Assembly (NCBI GenBank): GCA_013141505.1 | Contig: JABFQX010000006.1 | Location: 153,300 to 217,299, forward strand | Reading direction: 5' to 3' | DNA from: Methyloglobulus sp. | GTDB taxonomy: Bacteria; Pseudomonadota; Gammaproteobacteria; Methylococcales; Methylomonadaceae | DNA: 64,000 nt | In this document: in pieces, positions 4,668-38,288 of the stretch | Numbering within the stretch: the first letter of the stretch is position 1 | Layout of the letters: the number at the start of each line of letters is the position of its first letter | Position numbers and translations under genes: made by a program | The notes under the pieces: generated by a model | The model's database searches: none | Told to the model about the DNA's origin: nothing | What the model saw: the letters and a program-made list of their open reading frames with translations, nothing else

Positions 4668-5672
4668 TCAAAGCAATTCATTGATCGGCCAGCGTGGCCT
4701 GGCTGCTATTTTCAGGCTTTGTTGTTCGCCCCTAAGTAAGCGTTGACAGCCGGCATAAGCAATCATAGCGCCGTTATCGGTGCAAAATTCTGGCCTTGGA
4801 AAATAAATCTCGCTTTTTTCTAACGCTGCCATTTCATTTAATGACGCACGAATCTTTTTGTTGGCGCTCACCCCACCAGCGACCACCAACCGTTTAATAC
4901 CGGTTTGTTGGATGGCGCGTTTGCATTTGATGCTGAGAGTTTCGGCAACGGCTTGTTGGAAGGCGGCGGCAATATCGGCTTTATCCTGATCGGTTTTTCC
5001 GCTATTGCTAAAAGTGTTAAGCGTGAAAGTTTTAAGTCCGCTAAAGCTGAAATCCAATCCCGGCCTGTCGGTCATCGGACGGGGAAACTTTATGATTGGC
5101 TTGCCTTGCTCGGCAAGTTCAGCCAGTTTTGGCCCACCTGGATAGCCCAAGCCTAACATTTTTGCGGTCTTATCGAAGGCTTCACCTGCCGCATCGTCCA
5201 GTGATTCTCCTAATAATCGATAGCGACCTACACCCTCGACCTGTACCAACAAGGTGTGTCCACCGGAAATTAATAGCGCGACAAAAGGAAATGGTGGTGG
5301 ATTATCTTCCAACATCGGCGCGAGCAGGTGGCCTTCCATGTGGTGTACGGCAATGGCGGGAACCCCCCAAGCCCAGGCAATGCTTCTCGCAGTGGCTGCA
5401 CCGACCAGTAACGCGCCCATCAAACCTGGGCCTGCGGTGTAAGCAATGCCGTTTATATCGCTTTTTTGTAGGCGACTTTCCTGTAATGTTTGCTTGATAA
5501 GTGGCACTAATTTTCGAATATGATCGCGGGATGCTAGTTCCGGTACTACGCCGCCATATTCGTTGTGCATTTCGACCTGACTGTATAAATGATGGCAAAT
5601 CAGGCCACGTTGGGGGTGATAAATGGCAACGCCGGTCTCGTCGCAAGAGGTTTCTATCCCTAAAACATACAT
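4668..5672 (-). CDS. tsaD: tRNA N6-adenosine threonylcarbamoyltransferase TsaD
   Basis: TsaD transfers the threonylcarbamoyl group from TC-AMP to A37 of tRNAs that read ANN codons, in a complex with TsaB and TsaE. The 334 residues have the expected ASKHA fold: IETSCDET at residue 6-13, the metal-binding HMEGH motif (His111, His115), the [12 protein letters not shown] phosphate loop and [13 protein letters not shown] near the C-terminus with the [10 protein letters not shown] metal site. A Sua5/YciO-family gene, related to the partner enzyme, is cut at the end of the window. It is divergent from rpsU, as in many Gammaproteobacteria. Confidence 0.95.
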
Positions 5673-30116: not shown

Positions 30117-30830
30117 TCATTTAAGGCTTGGCTTGATGGGCAGATACAATTGATTGGCAACAAATGTGATGCCTGTCCCGGCGAGTTCCTGGACTTTTTT
30201 GTTGTGGCCCGCAGCGATGATTACCTTACCGTTTGCGAAACCGCTCCATATCGTCTGCAAAACCGCATCAGTGGCTTTAACTGATGTTAGGTCAAGGCCT
30301 GAAATGACGCGGAACGTATCACTATTCAACACGTACTGGTTATAGGAAAAACAAGGGCTGGTAATGCAGGCTCGGCCATTGCTTTCCAAGCCGACAAACT
30401 GGCCTGCCCCTAGGTGCGAAGTCACCGGCCTGAACGCTGATTTCAGTTCAAATCGGCCAAAATTAGCGAAATTGCTAAAAAGCAGCGGCCTAACAACGCC
30501 CCGCAATAAGGCGGCATGGGATAAGTCAATGGCATTGGGGTTATTGACGGTGCCGATATAACATTCGGGTTGCAAACGCCCATCTGGACAACGGGTAAGG
30601 TTGCGGTTGACCGACTTGACGAAAATGCCGCCGCACATGGGCGACGCACATTTACGCATATCTTCACGGAAGGTGTAATAACCATATTGTTCAAAATTAC
30701 CCAGTGGCGTTAACACAACAGGATCGACAGGGAGCACCACATTGCCAGCATACGCATTGGCGACTAAACCATTTATGGAAACACTAAAAAATAACAATAA
30801 CAAAAAACCTAAAGGATTACGGATGTTCAT
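30117..30830 (-). CDS. Secreted protein with a CGG-type Cys motif (possibly DUF6748)
   Basis: A 237-residue protein with a signal peptide (hydrophobic residues 8-22, cleavage near NAYA at about 28). The first half of the mature part has YYTFREDMRKCASPMCGGIFVKSVNRNLTRCPDGRLQPECYIG, with four to five cysteines; this layout resembles the DUF6748 domain, but the assignment is from memory and moderate. The remainder shows VGLESNGRACITSPCFSY, another Cys pair. Probably a disulphide-stabilised periplasmic or extracellular protein. It is near another secreted protein on the same strand (30994-31464) but 163 bp apart. Confidence 0.65.
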   Translation of the reverse strand: MNIRNPLGFLLLLFFSVSINGLVANAYAGNVVLPVDPVVLTPLGNFEQYGYYTFREDMRKCASPMCGGIFVKSVNRNLTRCPDGRLQPECYIGTVNNPNAIDLSHAALLRGVVRPLLFSNFANFGRFELKSAFRPVTSHLGAGQFVGLESNGRACITSPCFSYNQYVLNSDTFRVISGLDLTSVKATDAVLQTIWSGFANGKVIIAAGHNKKVQELAGTGITFVANQLYLPIKPSLK

Positions 30831-30993
30831 AAGTTAAGTCCTCAGTAATTAAAGGCGATACACGCAAAGGAAAGAAAGCAGGAAATAAGCAAGCTCTCCA
30901 GGCCGCACTTCATAATTTGCCCAGCAATTAAAGCGAAAGCAGCTTTGCCATTACAGGGTGTTATGAATGTTGGCCTGGAGCAGACAACTTGCC

Positions 30994-31464
30994 CTATTTA
31001 GGGCACGGCGCAAATTCGCATCTTGGCCCGGTACGGCCTACGTAGGAGCCATTCGGGCATTGTTTTACTTCCATGGTACACATGATTTGATCATCGGGCG
31101 GGTAAGGCTTATAGTCTGTGCAGGTTGCAATCCAGCGGACATTATAAAAACTGGTCAGAGGATTTGCCTTGATGGCTTTTAACTGTTTTACAAATGCGCC
31201 AAACTGTTTGGTATATGGCGAGGCTTGTACACAACCGGTAAAACCGCCTTCAATGGGTCTTGCAAACTCATTGACGATAAATTTATCGACGATGCCCTGC
31301 CCCACACCAAAGCCGATCGCTTGCCGAACCGTTTGCAAGGCGGCTTGATCAACACCGGGGCCAATGCCGCCGATGCTGATTTCAACAGCACGGTTCGCCG
31401 CCATTGATACACTCGACACTAACATCAGCAGTGAACATAGCAAATAAAAACAAGATTTTTTCAT
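30994..31464 (-). CDS. Secreted Cys-rich protein with a CPNGSYVGRTGP-type tail
   Basis: A 156-residue protein with a signal peptide (KKSCFYLLCSLLMLVSSVSMAA). The ATG at 31464 is chosen: it has GGAG 8 bases upstream, whereas the longer frame would start on TTG. The mature part has a helical first half and a Cys-rich end, CTMEVKQCPNGSYVGRTGPRC and then a CxxxxC pair. That tail is a small disulphide module found at the end of many secreted proteins of Proteobacteria; its function is unknown to me. A long inverted repeat lies 34-111 bp before the start. Confidence 0.7.
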   Translation of the reverse strand: MKKSCFYLLCSLLMLVSSVSMAANRAVEISIGGIGPGVDQAALQTVRQAIGFGVGQGIVDKFIVNEFARPIEGGFTGCVQASPYTKQFGAFVKQLKAIKANPLTSFYNVRWIATCTDYKPYPPDDQIMCTMEVKQCPNGSYVGRTGPRCEFAPCPK

Positions 31465-31497
31465 TTCATTCTCCAATGGATTGAGCTACGAAAAGAC

Positions 31498-31575
31498 AAC
31501 TGCCAATACAATAGAAGGTAACGACTTATCACTTTGTCACAGCGTTATAGACAGCCCTTCATTGTATTGGCAGTT
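31498..31575 (-). promoter_or_regulatory. Long inverted repeat in the leader of the Cys-rich protein gene
   Basis: The arms 31498-31518 and 31556-31575 pair over 20 bp with one bulged base (core AACTGCCAATACAAT). An inner TAACG/CGTTA pair (31519-31523, 31543-31547) extends it. It begins 33 bp upstream of the ATG at 31464. It could be a structured 5' leader, an operator or a small mobile remnant; no target duplication is seen. The rest of the 683-bp gap 31465-32147 holds only the hairpin repeat below. Confidence 0.6.
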
Positions 31576-32147: not shown

Positions 32148-34499
32148 TCAACAGCTAGACTTGTTTTGTACTCGCAACCACCAGCCTTCATGCGTACCTT
32201 GATACGGATCAATACCTTGCCAACACTCAAATAACCACTGACCGAAGCGCACACACGACGGCAAACCAGTGTCGTCACGCTCAATCACATCGTACTGACA
32301 TTGCGCGAAATACATATGGCCTACCGATTGATGCACGTCGTAAGCCCAATGGGGACGTTTTTCATCAATCAATTCATACCACGGGCAAGAATAAGCAGTT
32401 GGCGGAGGACTTGGTAAAGGCTCTTTTCCAGAACGTAACCGCCAGAATAGCCTGCTCTTCGCGATGTCTATATCACTTGGTAACCAACTGCCCTTGTAGT
32501 AACGCGTTTGTCTGGCAGTTTGAATCCATTTTGTCATCGCTATACAGATAAACAAATCTCGCTCTGTCAAAATTATAATCGGCGGGTTGTAGCCAAAGAA
32601 TTCCTCCAGATATTCTAAAAGGCGTTCTTCATCTGAAAGCATCCGTTGAAACAGTTTACTCTTGGCGATTTGTTTTCTAGTTGGCAACCAATCTTCGCCG
32701 CAACGCTTCCGTAAAACCTCAATCCATTCAACGAGTACGACACAAATTAACCTATCGCGACTAGTCAATATCGGTGGGCCGTGGTCTGCGTAACCTCGCC
32801 CTTCCACTGAATTACCGATTTCTTCATCATTTGGCTTGAATACCTTGGCCAATTTACTGTGCTTATTGCTATAGAAGACATAAATCAACAAGCCGATAAG
32901 CAGCCATAATGCAAACAACTTCCACTTTTCCAACTCAATACCGGTCAATAAATAACAACATGACAACAAGCCTAATACCGGAATCAAGGAAAAATTCTTG
33001 ATATATGACGCGACATTTAAGCCAACTAACACACTAAAAAAAACCAGTAATTGAATGTCGATATTATTGTTAACCCAATTTTTTAGATAATTACCCAACA
33101 AATCCGGCTTGGCATAGACGATGGTATTTAAAGCAGTTAACGTTATGAGCGGCAAGATATACTTGGCATTGACGTAAGGTAGACGGAAGTGTTTGCCGTC
33201 ATTGCGTGGAACTTTACCGTATTGCTGTGTAGGCAAAGTTAAAACGCCCGCACAAACCAAGATGAAGGCGAATAAGGTACCGATGCTGGTCAAATCCAGG
33301 ACGAATTTTTCATCAGTAAATAGCAACAATAGTGTGACCACGCCGCCGGTCAACACCGTTGAAAATCCCGGTGTTTTATAATTAGGGTGGAGTGCGCCGA
33401 ATTTAGCGGGTAACAAGCCATCATTGCTCATCGCCATCCATATTCTGGGTTGCCCCATTTGGAACACCAGCAATACACTGGTCATTGCCACGACTGCCGC
33501 GACCGAAATAAACAACGCTATCCATTTAACCCCTCTGAGTTGAAATGCTTCGGCGACAGGGTCATTAACGCCCAGATACTGATACGACACCACCCCGGTC
33601 AGCACCAAAGCCAACACAATATAAAGTACAGTACAAATGATCAGTGAATAAATCATCCCCCTAGGCAAATCCCGTTGCGGATTTTTGCATTCTCCGGCCA
33701 GCGTGGAAACCGCATCAAAGCCGATATAGGCAAAAAATACTGCCGACACACCGCCCATCACCCCGCTAAAACCGTTGGGCATAAACGGTGTCCAGTTATC
33801 GATATCAATGTAAAAAATACCCACCGCTATCACCAATACCACGACAAGCAATTTCAATATCACCAGGAAGTTGCTTATATTTTTAGCTTCCTTTACGCCT
33901 CTGTACACTAAAGTGGTGATGACTAAATTGGCGGTAATGGCAGGTGAATCCATAATAAACCTCAAATTTCCCAATTGTGGCGCAGTTTCCCATGCTAACT
34001 TACCTTCGCTTTTTAGCTGGGCTATCGCTTGCGCGTGAGCAGACGTGTAATTTATGGTTAACCACGCGGGTAAATGCCAACCCGCACTGTCCAGCAGATT
34101 GGTGAAATAGCCGCTCCAGGAAAACGCAACAAATACATTACTGACTGAATATTCAGTCAACAACGCCCAGCCGATAATCCAGGCGAAAAACTCCCCAAAC
34201 GCCACGTAAGCGTAGGTATAAGCGCTGCCTGAAACCGGCACCTGTACGGCAAATTCGGCATAACACATCGCGGTAAAACCACAGGCCACCGCGCAAAATA
34301 GATACAGGAACACCACGCCCGGCCCACCGCTAAAACAGGCATTACCAATGGCGCTGAAAATACCGCTGCCGATGATGGCGGCAATGCCGAATAGCGTCAG
34401 GTCACGCACTGATAATATCTGGTGCATATCGCCATTGTTGCCGCCATTTTGTTGTAAATCGTGCAGAGATTTTTTGCGGAATAAATAATTAATACTCAT
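32148..34499 (-). CDS. APC-family amino-acid permease with a duplicated C-terminal domain
   Basis: The first 545 residues are an amino-acid/polyamine/organocation transporter of the cationic amino-acid type: LTLFGIAAIIGSGIFSAIGNA is the substrate loop of helix 1, followed by about 12-14 membrane segments. A cytoplasmic extension of about 235 residues follows (32148-32858), not usual in this family. It contains two clearly related units, at 32619-32780 and 32409-32588, sharing the pattern LT-x-RD-x(2)-IC, WI, WLP and IAKS-x-LF, and then a Trp- and Cys-rich tail. The ATG at 34499 is chosen over a TTG three codons earlier. It stands alone, with secreted protein genes on both sides. The substrate is unknown, and the extension could be regulatory (inference). 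Confidence 0.85.
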   Translation of the reverse strand: MSINYLFRKKSLHDLQQNGGNNGDMHQILSVRDLTLFGIAAIIGSGIFSAIGNACFSGGPGVVFLYLFCAVACGFTAMCYAEFAVQVPVSGSAYTYAYVAFGEFFAWIIGWALLTEYSVSNVFVAFSWSGYFTNLLDSAGWHLPAWLTINYTSAHAQAIAQLKSEGKLAWETAPQLGNLRFIMDSPAITANLVITTLVYRGVKEAKNISNFLVILKLLVVVLVIAVGIFYIDIDNWTPFMPNGFSGVMGGVSAVFFAYIGFDAVSTLAGECKNPQRDLPRGMIYSLIICTVLYIVLALVLTGVVSYQYLGVNDPVAEAFQLRGVKWIALFISVAAVVAMTSVLLVFQMGQPRIWMAMSNDGLLPAKFGALHPNYKTPGFSTVLTGGVVTLLLLFTDEKFVLDLTSIGTLFAFILVCAGVLTLPTQQYGKVPRNDGKHFRLPYVNAKYILPLITLTALNTIVYAKPDLLGNYLKNWVNNNIDIQLLVFFSVLVGLNVASYIKNFSLIPVLGLLSCCYLLTGIELEKWKLFALWLLIGLLIYVFYSNKHSKLAKVFKPNDEEIGNSVEGRGYADHGPPILTSRDRLICVVLVEWIEVLRKRCGEDWLPTRKQIAKSKLFQRMLSDEERLLEYLEEFFGYNPPIIILTERDLFICIAMTKWIQTARQTRYYKGSWLPSDIDIAKSRLFWRLRSGKEPLPSPPPTAYSCPWYELIDEKRPHWAYDVHQSVGHMYFAQCQYDVIERDDTGLPSCVRFGQWLFECWQGIDPYQGTHEGWWLRVQNKSSC

Positions 34500-34576
34500 G
34501 GCTGCCAATAAGACCGATTAGTGATATGCCGAAGCCCATAAAAAACTCCGGCATATTTTTAAGTGCTCTTTTTATC

Positions 34577-35239
34577 TTAAAGCTTTGGAAAGTATTTCCA
34601 TTGCTGCTGCAGATACCCGCTGCGCGGCCATTGCATCAAGCGGATACCATCCACTTTAACGCCATGTGCGGTCGCAACAGTCATGCACATCGTACTGTAA
34701 ACATTGCAATACCGGTAATAACCGCCCCCTGTCGATTCCCTAGTCCATAAGGTATCGTTATGTGCCGGATTACAACTGCCAACAAAAAGACTGGAACTAG
34801 GCTGACGGTCTCTAACCCGGATACAGAGATTTTTCTCATAGTTGCGTAGCTGGAGCGTACCTGGCGTTTTAACTACGTGTTCCCAATACTGGGTGGACAT
34901 GTTAAAACAAGTCGATTGATATACCGGATCATACATAATAATGGCATTCCAGTATGGCGTGTCCGCACACTTTCCGGAAGCTCTGTTCACCAACCAGCCG
35001 ACGGTAGAACGCGGCTCAGCCGATACACTCGCGGAAATTGCAAACATTCCCACGACGAGACCCCCGATTAATACACCACGAGTAGCGAATAGGGATTTCC
35101 CTATTTTTTTCATTTGCTTTTGCTGCGTTTTCATATCGATTACCCCGGATTCACTTATTGGAAAGCCTTTAGCCGCCAGAGCTGCTTCTAAGCTATTAAT
35201 GCTTATTTTGTCAACATCGTTGCAATGTAGGATACTCAT
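34577..35239 (-). CDS. Secreted ricin-B-lectin-like protein
   Basis: A 220-residue protein whose mature part resembles a ricin-type beta-trefoil: GWLVNRASGKCADTP, QYWEHVV, LQLRNYEKNLCIRVRD, TLWTRE and a QQQWKYF ending of QxW type, with six cysteines. Such domains bind sugars, but only about 145 residues are present and the match is by eye. A hydrophobic signal-like segment is at residues 55-74 (cleavage near SVSA). The start is uncertain: the ATG at 35239 has a strong AGGA site but gives a very long pre-sequence; ATG 35134 gives a more normal signal peptide with a weaker site. Confidence 0.65.
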   Translation of the reverse strand: MSILHCNDVDKISINSLEAALAAKGFPISESGVIDMKTQQKQMKKIGKSLFATRGVLIGGLVVGMFAISASVSAEPRSTVGWLVNRASGKCADTPYWNAIIMYDPVYQSTCFNMSTQYWEHVVKTPGTLQLRNYEKNLCIRVRDRQPSSSLFVGSCNPAHNDTLWTRESTGGGYYRYCNVYSTMCMTVATAHGVKVDGIRLMQWPRSGYLQQQWKYFPKL

Positions 35240-35442
35240 TCAATTCCTACGATTGGGCTAATTAACAATCTAAACTGGGGGATTTTGGCAGGCAATACAT
35301 ATTCCTCTACCTTAGGATTCCAATCTCTATTGTGATTACCCGGAAGGTCGAGCTCCTTCCTCATAAGTATCCATAGCTGTCTGTCCTAGCGTACATCTAC
35401 GAGCGATTAAGCTGCTATGAGATAACTACCCCAAATGATGAG

Positions 35443-35475
35443 GATTGGCGGATGCTCTTGGAGCATCCGCCAATC
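35443..35475. terminator. Perfect 15-bp hairpin
   Basis: GATTGGCGGATGCTC (35443-35457) pairs without mismatch with 35461-35475 around a TTG loop. It lies 42 bp after the stop of the secreted protein gene at 35517-35927 (minus strand). There is no T-tract on either side, so it may stabilise the 3' end or stop transcription only partly. The rest of the 277-bp gap 35240-35516 holds nothing I recognise. Confidence 0.6.
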
Positions 35476-35516
35476 AATCAAGTTTAATTAACGCAAGAGG
35501 CTTGCCTGATTGTAAA

Positions 35517-35927
35517 TCAATAACAGGTCTGTATGCCAAGCGGTAGGTTTGTCTTTGTATTTAGGAAATGGTCGGGCATGTAGCCATACCACAATGTGCC
35601 GTGCATTTTAACAACCGCACCATCCCAAATTCTTGATCCTGCAATGGGATAACCCTTGGTATTTTGGCAAAGAATACATACAAAATCCCCTTGGGGCACA
35701 GTAATGCGCCCTAGATGCTTAATACCGGTCGCATTGTTTGTCACATCATATGCCCCACGTATGTTATGCGCTGTATCAGTGCGAAAATCAAGCCCCGTCT
35801 TGGTATGTATTACGGCAGCTGGAATTCCGGCTGTACAAATCGAGCCTGCATGTACAAACTGTGAAACGCTTGTAACAGCCAATAATGCCATTGCATAAAT
35901 TAAAGATGTTAAGGTAAGTTTTTTCAT
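35517..35927 (-). CDS. Small secreted protein of unknown function (SH3-like candidate)
   Basis: A 136-residue protein with a signal peptide (MKKLTLTSLIYAMALLAVTSVSQFVHA). The ATG at 35927 has GGAGAAAG upstream; a start five codons earlier is less likely. The mature part is about 110 residues, beta-rich, with FRTDTAHNIRGAYD, GDFVCILCQNTKGYP and WDGAVVKMHGTLWYGYMPDHFL. The spacing of glycines and the final WYGYMPDHFL resemble bacterial SH3-like cell-wall binding domains, but I cannot confirm it. Four cysteines suggest disulphides. It is divergent from the sensor gene at 36201. Confidence 0.6.
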   Translation of the reverse strand: MKKLTLTSLIYAMALLAVTSVSQFVHAGSICTAGIPAAVIHTKTGLDFRTDTAHNIRGAYDVTNNATGIKHLGRITVPQGDFVCILCQNTKGYPIAGSRIWDGAVVKMHGTLWYGYMPDHFLNTKTNLPLGIQTCY

Positions 35928-36048
35928 TTTCTTTCTCCACATAGTTAGAAAATATCCACAGCGGAATGCTGTGGATGAATCAAGAATATCATAGAGTAAA
36001 AAATTGTAACTGTTTGATATATAATATATATTACTATTAGTCGCTATG

Positions 36049-36200: not shown

Positions 36201-38288
36201 ATGGCAAAATTTATCAGAGATCAATGGGACGTATTTATAAGTTTAAACAGATATCATGGAATTGATAGTTTTGCGGCGGCGAGCAATCGCTTGGCCGAAT
36301 TAATGCCGAAAAAACCTAATGAAGCAACTATAAGAGCCTGGGTTACAAAATCGGCAATTCTAAAGGAAGACGGAAAGCATTTTGCACAAGCATTCAGGCT
36401 AGACCCAGATCAATTTAAGGAAATATTAGAAGCAACCCGCTTTAGAGACGGAAACGACTTGGCTTGTGATTCCGGGACGCTTAAAGCTACGCTCAAACAG
36501 GAATACCAGAAAATTCTTAAAATTTATCTCTGGCAGCTTGATGTGCTTATTGATGAAGGTAATTTGATTCATGGCATCACAGATAAGTACGAGTTGAATA
36601 AGCGATTGAGAATACCTATAGCAGAAGGGCTTTCGGAACCGCCATGGACTGAAGAAGAGATTAACTGGCCGGAGGAAATTCAGTTTAGCAACTTAGCTAG
36701 TGAACTGAGCTTTGAATCAGAAGCCTATCTAGCACACATTCTGTGGGAAATTCATCGTGAAAAATTTATTGAAAAAGCTCAGCGTTATTACGCAGATCAG
36801 AGTATAAAAAAAGGGTTGAACATAATAAATAAACCAGATGTCATCCAGCACGAAGGAAGTGAACAAGACATAAAGACGGAAGCCTCTACTGGCAAGGAAG
36901 AAAACACAAATATTCCCGATGGTGACGTAGATATAAACACTCTAAACCCCATTGAGACAACCCCTCAGATAGATGAGGGTGTAAAACCCACGGAAAAAGG
37001 TTGGCCCACCTTAAAAAATCCATTGGGGAAAGAGGCAGTTTGGGCGGCAATAACCGCTATTCTTCTGTGCTTGTTAATAATTATCTATTTACGACACCCC
37101 GCCCCCATTCCAAAGCCAGAGCTAGTGCCGCTGCCAAAACCACCCATTGCTAAGGAAACAATGCCGCAAGTGCGTCCGGTCAGCCCCAACATGACTGACA
37201 TAACTGGAACCGATTTAGTTACGATTACTTGGGTAGATGATAAGCCTTCAGCCGATGTCCAATACGTGCTTGAATTGATTTACACCCCAACTGGCAAAAA
37301 TAACCCACAGACAGAATACAAAGATCTTAAGGAAATATCTCGCCAAGGTAATATTTTTTCAACACAGGTGGGGATTCATAAAAGCGGCGCATATAAATGG
37401 ATGGTTAGGCGCAAATCAGAATACAACTCTAATTCTGAAAACACAGAACCATTTTCCTTGAAATTCAATTACTGGGAAAACTATTTGGCTAAAATAATAG
37501 CACGCAAAGTATTGAAGATTGCTGTCGTCGTATCCGAACAGGATCGCTTCATCAACAAGCAAAATAATCAATTCGTCGGTTACGATACCGAGGTAATCGA
37601 TTTCATCAAATCAAGGCTTGATGGCGTTGAGGTCAGATACACCGATACTACTTGGCCGGAATTCCTGAAAATCATGGAAAACGGCGACGTGGATGCCGCC
37701 ATTTCATCCATGACTAATCTGACTTCGCGCATTAAAGACAAAAATGTGGACTTTACCAGCTATTATTTCCATCCACACCAAGCATTTTTCGAGCTTAATA
37801 GCGGTTCTGCCAGCAAAAATCCTCTACAAATCATGGAGCGACTCAAAAATGCCGAAGTCGGCGTGGTAGAAGGGTCGTCCAATAAAATGCTGGCAGAATA
37901 TCTGCTTAAGGCAGACAACAACCCTCAATATGATTTTGTCATTAAATCCGGTTATGAAAATATTACCAGCTTGAGTACTGCACTGAAAAATAAGAAAATT
38001 GATTTCATGCTGACCGATTGCGAACTCGTACAACCATCGGGTAATCTCAGGGTTGCGCTGGTTGTGTCAGAAAGACATAAACAGCAGTACGTTCGCGAAC
38101 AATTATTTAGCGTCTCCAAAGGTGAACCCAGAGAAGAATATATAATAGTTACCCAAACCGATGGCACACATAGCTTAAGCAATAAAATTGCCGATATCCT
38201 GCAAAGCCAAAAGGGCGTAGCAAAACTTAAAGAATTGTCAGATAAGATTTATGCAGAAACCCCGGATTGCCAAGCCAGCAATAACTGA
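36201..38288 (+). CDS. Single-pass membrane protein with a periplasmic SBP_bac_3-type domain
   Basis: A 695-residue protein. Residues 1-278 are hydrophilic and presumably cytoplasmic; helices around 22-80 (SFAAASNRLAELMPKKPNEATIRAW) look like a possible DNA- or protein-binding fold, but no family is recognised. A single membrane segment is at 279-298, then a Pro-rich linker (299-325), a beta-sandwich or Fn3-like stretch (about 330-425) and a solute-binding domain of SBP_bac_3 type (about 437-685: LKIAVVVSEQDRFI, VGYDTEVIDFIKSRL, GDVDAAISSMTNLTSR, IGV-type VGVVEGSSNKMLAEYLL). There is no kinase, GGDEF or MCP domain. The topology recalls ToxR/CadC-type one-component sensors. A good AGGAACAACC site precedes the ATG. 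Confidence 0.8.
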   Translation: MAKFIRDQWDVFISLNRYHGIDSFAAASNRLAELMPKKPNEATIRAWVTKSAILKEDGKHFAQAFRLDPDQFKEILEATRFRDGNDLACDSGTLKATLKQEYQKILKIYLWQLDVLIDEGNLIHGITDKYELNKRLRIPIAEGLSEPPWTEEEINWPEEIQFSNLASELSFESEAYLAHILWEIHREKFIEKAQRYYADQSIKKGLNIINKPDVIQHEGSEQDIKTEASTGKEENTNIPDGDVDINTLNPIETTPQIDEGVKPTEKGWPTLKNPLGKEAVWAAITAILLCLLIIIYLRHPAPIPKPELVPLPKPPIAKETMPQVRPVSPNMTDITGTDLVTITWVDDKPSADVQYVLELIYTPTGKNNPQTEYKDLKEISRQGNIFSTQVGIHKSGAYKWMVRRKSEYNSNSENTEPFSLKFNYWENYLAKIIARKVLKIAVVVSEQDRFINKQNNQFVGYDTEVIDFIKSRLDGVEVRYTDTTWPEFLKIMENGDVDAAISSMTNLTSRIKDKNVDFTSYYFHPHQAFFELNSGSASKNPLQIMERLKNAEVGVVEGSSNKMLAEYLLKADNNPQYDFVIKSGYENITSLSTALKNKKIDFMLTDCELVQPSGNLRVALVVSERHKQQYVREQLFSVSKGEPREEYIIVTQTDGTHSLSNKIADILQSQKGVAKLKELSDKIYAETPDCQASNN

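What the first reader, a model, noticed from the sequence alone, without database searches (positions are those of the whole stretch)
32148..32858. Amino-acid permease fused to a tandemly duplicated, unrecognised domain
After the last membrane segment a 235-residue cytoplasmic extension has two diverged copies of one unit (LT-x-RD..IC....WI....WLP....IAKS-x-LF-x-R) and then a Trp/Cys-rich tail. I know of no APC transporter with this domain. The conserved WLP and IAKS positions point to selection on structure. It might be a sensor or gate, or couple the transporter to another protein.
Basis: partly seen in the sequence, partly recalled or inferred. Interest (0 to 1): 0.7.

Follow-up and report, generated by a model that had tools for sequence, protein, structure and literature searches.

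The report
Permease fused to phage-family protein
An ordinary bacterial amino-acid transporter gene has been joined, in this one genome, to an intact copy of an undescribed small protein that otherwise occurs by itself in bacteriophages (including one giant phage) and Pseudomonas megaplasmids; this identifies the origin of the strange tail but not its job.

Summary
ORF 32148-34508 (-) is an intact APC/CAT-type permease (Pfam PF13520 plus PF13906 C-terminus) followed by about 230 residues with a real tandem repeat (alignment score 109; best of 1000 shuffles 48). No Pfam, NCBIfam or PHROGs model matches the extension. It is nevertheless a complete member of an unnamed family of stand-alone proteins. 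Iterated searches found it in a 368-kb phage contig carrying a terminase (37% identity over 238 columns, both repeat copies), in a phage contig between terminase and portal genes (156-aa protein, 51% over 149 columns, one copy), on about a dozen more IMG/VR contigs, and in 110-120 Pseudomonas megaplasmid records. The repeat is the family's N-terminal helical module. Family-conserved residues are mostly kept, so the domain is not decayed; its codon usage is atypical here. All 38 permease relatives checked end at the usual ...HSKL; only this genome has the fusion. Most likely: horizontal capture of a phage-type gene fused to the 3' end of a permease gene. The extension is predicted to fold, with no known fold match. 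Its function (anchor, regulator or passenger) is untested.

The parts
32844..34499 (-). APC-superfamily (CAT/BcaP-like) amino-acid permease, complete, with the usual end ...YSNKHSKLAK
   Evidence: PF13520 E 1.8e-48, PF00324 E 3e-38, PF13906 AA_permease_C E 1.7e-07; NCBIfam NF053761 and TIGR00909/00906 below their curated cut-offs; relatives stop at ...HSKLxx*
32784..32843 (-). junction/linker of about 20 residues (VFKPNDEEIGNSVEGRGYAD), unlike either parent
   Evidence: beyond the normal permease end and before the start of homology to L040 at extension residue 27; pLDDT under 50 over extension residues 1-30
32643..32777 (-). unit 1: extra copy of the N-terminal helical module
   Evidence: repeat score 109 versus shuffle maximum 48; 46% identical to the single module of L112
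32433..32585 (-). unit 2: helical module ending KSRLFWRLR, corresponds to the N-terminus of the stand-alone relatives
   Evidence: 56% identical to L112 and 52% to L040
32364..32420 (-). family signature PLPSPPPTAYSCPWYELID
   Evidence: near-invariant across phage and megaplasmid relatives
32160..32363 (-). beta-rich C-terminal domain (Trp/Cys-rich tail)
   Evidence: aligns with the tail of L112 and L040; seven strands in the model

Best explanation
A normal, intact amino-acid permease has been fused at its cytoplasmic C-terminus to a complete protein of an undescribed phage/megaplasmid family. Shown: the homology, completeness and stand-alone state of the relatives; the absence of the extension from permease relatives; foreign-looking codon usage; no recognisable phage remnants in the near flanks. 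Inferred: a phage- or plasmid-type gene landed downstream of the permease gene, and loss of the permease stop joined the frames within about 20 codons of the normal end. The permease part should still carry amino acids. The extension should fold as a separate cytosolic domain (helical module repeated twice, then a beta domain) and, if functional, keep its ancestral binding activity while held at the membrane. The ancestral activity is unknown.
For: Stand-alone full-length relative in L040 (247 aa, 37% over 238 columns, E 5e-39) on a 368-kb phage contig with terminase over its Pfam cut-off and helicase, glucosyltransferase and nucleotide-kinase genes. L112: 156-aa protein, 51% over 149 columns, between terminase and portal genes. 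Further phage relatives and Pseudomonas megaplasmid relatives. The extension keeps 20 of 24 family-conserved positions, like its nearest relatives at 19/26, 17/25 and 22/26. All 38 permease relatives end without it. No second copy or convincing relative in 201 family, 369 class or 201 order genomes. Codon usage is at the 2.65th percentile of window gene pieces while the permease part is typical. No phage homology left in the flanks.
Against: No close relative of the fused gene was found, so inheritance and selection on the fusion cannot be shown; one assembly only, no reads. Codon-usage evidence is modest. The near-flank check used only a limited set of phage loci. Most phage homologues were collected through the PP...S[YC]PWY motif, so profile E-values for them are somewhat flattering. 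The nearest known relative is only 51% identical.
Confidence: 0.85

Rival explanations
1. The extension is a selected regulator: it senses a cytosolic signal or partner and gates or positions the transporter.
For: The domain is intact and predicted to fold, with an extra copy of the helical module; fusions of cytosolic domains to the C-terminus of transporters are a general theme (own knowledge).
Against: Found in a single genome; no orthologous fusion among 38 permease relatives; family members live in phages and megaplasmids without a transporter.
Confidence: 0.25
2. Recent neutral accident: a tolerated read-through fusion with no function beyond transport.
For: Unique to one genome; no conserved context with the same-genus genomes, whose NadE upstream flanks share nothing else of this region with the window.
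Against: The 239-codon frame is open and family-conserved positions are kept, though a recent fusion would look the same.
Confidence: 0.45
3. The extension is translated separately from an internal start (for example GTG at 32807), so the permease gene is a container rather than a true fusion.
For: An in-frame GTG lies a few residues before the start of homology with L040.
Against: The frame is continuous with the permease with no stop and no clear ribosome-binding site sits at normal spacing before the GTG (read); no promoter test was made.
Confidence: 0.1
4. Assembly artefact joining a permease gene to phage sequence.
For: Atypical codon usage of the extension; single draft assembly of 99 contigs.
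Against: Join lies inside a contig of at least 217 kb in a genome rated 100% complete with 0.11% contamination; same overall G+C on both sides; frame kept; the next genes on the far side continue as ordinary chromosome.
Confidence: 0.06

Closest known systems
Unnamed phage protein family with core [KH]S.L.R...GK.PLP.PPP..[YHF]S[YC]PWY (L112 4619-5089, L040 4746-5489)
   Same: Whole extension aligns: helical module, signature, beta tail, closing GWW
   Different: Those are free proteins of roughly 140-300 aa, mostly with one module; here it is fused to a permease and the module is doubled
Pseudomonas megaplasmid hypothetical proteins (for example WP_019484822, 291 aa, NZ_CP083367)
   Same: N-terminal module and KSSLYHRLRAGKQPL.LPPP..SYPWY signature
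   Different: Longer C-terminal half ending W.LQRISP..L...HYL; stand-alone; about 25% identity
CAT/BcaP-type APC permeases (PF13520 with PF13906)
   Same: Transport domain and its normal end YS..HSKLAK
   Different: Relatives stop there; none of 38 checked carries the extension

Membership tests
APC-superfamily amino-acid permease (CAT/BcaP-like) | Profile match over the transport domain above curated cut-off | tested here: met
   PF13520 166 bits (cut-off 27), PF00324 132 (24.6), PF13906 31.7 (27)
BcaP branched-chain amino-acid transporter (NF053761 equivalog) | Score above the equivalog cut-off | tested here: not met
   468 bits versus cut-off 690; substrate therefore not assigned
PPP-S[YC]PWY phage/megaplasmid family (this report) | Signature [KH]S.L.R...GK.PLP.PPP..[YHF]S[YC]PWY | tested here: met
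PPP-S[YC]PWY phage/megaplasmid family (this report) | Full-length co-linear homology including the tail | tested here: met
   51% over 149 columns with L112, 37% over 238 with L040
PPP-S[YC]PWY phage/megaplasmid family (this report) | Stand-alone protein (usual state, not essential to homology) | tested here: not met
   here continuous with the permease frame
Any Pfam, NCBIfam or PHROGs family for the extension | Significant profile match | tested here: not met
   no significant match; relatives L112 etc. also none in Pfam and none meaningful in PHROGs
Helix-turn-helix / nucleic-acid-binding folds | Structural match | tested here: inconclusive
   only weak hits, best Z 5.2 (rmsd 3.7, 78 aligned) to a TnpB chain, others 2-3.5; no Foldseek hit below 0.001

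The most novel reading that the evidence does not exclude
The family is a phage and megaplasmid host-interaction protein whose natural target is a membrane transporter or membrane-proximal process, and this fusion is a natural 'Rosetta stone' that reveals the target: a host has permanently coupled a phage-type protein to an amino-acid permease.
Probability: 0.08. Interest if true: 0.75.

Novelty: new variant of a known kind. Interest (0 to 1): 0.42.

Why it matters
It shows that the odd tail is a captured mobile-element protein and brings to light an unannotated protein family spread over tailed phages, at least one giant phage and Pseudomonas megaplasmids. A host fusion is one of the few hints about where such a protein might act. 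For transporter annotation it is a caution against reading a one-genome fusion as a conserved sensor domain.

Tried and rejected
Single-sequence scans of genome contigs and viral contigs with the extension found nothing. The signature peptide gave only chance-level hits in annotated phage records and the L040 protein none there. Three Vibrio plasmid hits at E 0.09 lie in a 605-aa protein that reads like an extracellular solute-binding protein and were judged chance. L035 (E 0.003) lacks the signature and was rejected. PDB sequence matches were all at noise level. Structure searches gave no match worth naming; the absence is not evidence of a new fold. Folding the whole 786-aa protein without an alignment failed (pLDDT 38). 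Weak hits to TnpB/Cas12, MukF, IscR and similar helical chains hint at a helix-turn-helix-like module but are too weak to use. Same-genus genomes keep NadE but not the region around the permease, so no empty site could be read. Literature searches found no description of such a fusion; the jumbo-phage search was not followed into the papers.

Full report
OBSERVATION. Residues up to about 555 are a complete APC permease: PF13520 E 1.8e-48, PF00324 E 3e-38, and the C-terminal family PF13906 E 1.7e-07. NCBIfam places it nearest BcaP (468 bits) but below that model's cut-off of 690, so no substrate is assigned. Then come about 20 linker residues and about 210 residues with the repeat. The two units align at 109 against a shuffle mean of 25.6, sd 4.5 and maximum 48.

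THE EXTENSION IS A WHOLE PROTEIN OF AN UNDESCRIBED FAMILY. It has no significant match in Pfam, NCBIfam, PHROGs or PDB sequences. A weak tblastn hit to Pseudomonas plasmids (35 residues, 49% identity) opened the way. The plasmid proteins (about 275-303 aa, in 110-120 megaplasmid records) share KSSLYHRLRAGKQPLVLPPPLSHSYPWYDVVES with the extension's KSRLFWRLRSGKEPLPSPPPTAYSCPWYELIDE, and their N-terminus lines up with the start of unit 2. A profile from these found viral contigs. The key one is L040, on a 368-kb IMG/VR contig: its ORF 4746-5489 (247 aa) is a stand-alone, co-linear relative of the whole extension, 37% identical over 238 columns, E 5e-39. That contig carries a terminase match above the Pfam cut-off, and helicase, thymidylate and guanylate kinase, glucosyltransferase and MazG-like genes, so it is a giant phage. 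A scan of viral contigs for the DNA form of PP...S[YC]PWY, followed by a profile search of the ORFs found, gave about a dozen more distinct relatives. The closest is L112 4619-5089, a free 156-aa protein 51% identical over 149 columns. It lies between a terminase large subunit gene and a portal gene, with a terminase small subunit upstream. Because the scan required the signature, the E-values of distant members are flattering; the matches of L112 and L040 are not affected by that, since they extend over the full length.

WHAT THE REPEAT IS. Relatives have a helical N-terminal module, the signature, and a tail. Most have one module. The window protein has two (42% identical). L040 has a diverged upstream copy. 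L114 (5294-5869) shows its own near-exact duplication of the module. So the tandem repeat is a habit of this family rather than a feature of the transporter.

STATE OF THE DOMAIN. At family-conserved alignment columns the extension keeps 20 of 24, against 19/26, 17/25 and 22/26 for its nearest relatives L112, L107 and L040. It is therefore intact. AlphaFold2 on an eight-sequence alignment gives mean pLDDT 75 and pTM 0.70, helices to about residue 168 then seven strands, with residues 1-30 disordered. Structure searches found nothing convincing.

ORIGIN OF THE FUSION. All 38 permease relatives examined, from the same family and from other families of the phylum, end close to ...HSKL and have no extension. 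The extension was not found again in 201 genomes of the family, 369 of the class or 201 of the order; the samples overlap and the first-look filter may miss distant copies. The permease part has typical codon usage for the window while the extension is at the 2.65th percentile of equal-length gene pieces, which fits a foreign origin. The flanks up to the neighbouring genes carry no homology to the phage loci at hand, and the next genes with known families are ordinary chromosomal ones. The simplest account is capture of a phage- or plasmid-type gene and in-frame joining to the 3' end of a permease gene.

HOW IT WORKS. Shown by sequence: transporter plus a non-decayed foreign domain that is predicted to fold. 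From knowledge of APC transporters: both termini face the cytosol, so the domain would be cytosolic. Inferred: transport persists, and the domain, if functional, is a membrane-anchored version of whatever the phage protein does. Genes near the phage copies include an RNA ligase and an RNA-binding protein in L114, a tRNA-His guanylyltransferase and an RNA ligase in L104, and a recurrent unknown neighbour phrog_7371 in L114, L117 and L123. That is a lead toward nucleic-acid or RNA-repair contexts, not a function. L112 sits in the packaging module instead, so the context is not uniform.

VERDICT. The finding is real and its domain is now placed: not a transporter domain, but a captured member of an unannotated mobile-element family. 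As a fusion it is known from a single genome, and no selection on it can be shown. A new variant of a known kind (gene fusion with a phage-type protein), moderate interest.

Noticed in passing
L114:5905-6540, L117:802-1560, L123:7218-7979: In three different phage contigs the gene just downstream of, or one gene away from, the PPP-S[YC]PWY family gene belongs to phrog_7371 (unknown function), suggesting a functional pair.
   Followed up: partly
L114:5294-5869: A relative in which the N-terminal helical module is duplicated almost exactly (NIFLxWIEICQKHGRDVMSDYTSL twice), an independent case of the repeat seen in the window.
   Followed up: partly
L112:4619-5089: An unannotated phage gene between terminase large subunit and portal; the family is in neither PHROGs nor Pfam.
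   Followed up: yes
window 30117-31476 and 34577-35942: The permease is flanked by predicted small secreted proteins on the same strand: a DUF6748 protein, a ricin-B-lectin-like protein (34577-35239) and two without family.
   Followed up: no
window 36201-38288: A 695-aa protein with an SBP_bac_3 solute-binding domain at its C-terminus after an apparent membrane segment and a long N-terminal part of unknown kind.
   Followed up: no
window 31498-31575: A perfect 15-nt inverted repeat (AACTGCCAATACAAT / ATTGTATTGGCAGTT) with 48 nt between the arms, in the gap downstream of the fused gene.
   Followed up: no
L023:2911-3786 and related Pseudomonas megaplasmid records: The longer plasmid branch of the family ends in a conserved W.LQRISP..L...HYL block absent from the phage branch; it sits in a run of hypothetical genes, in some records near a DUF262 gene.
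   Followed up: partly
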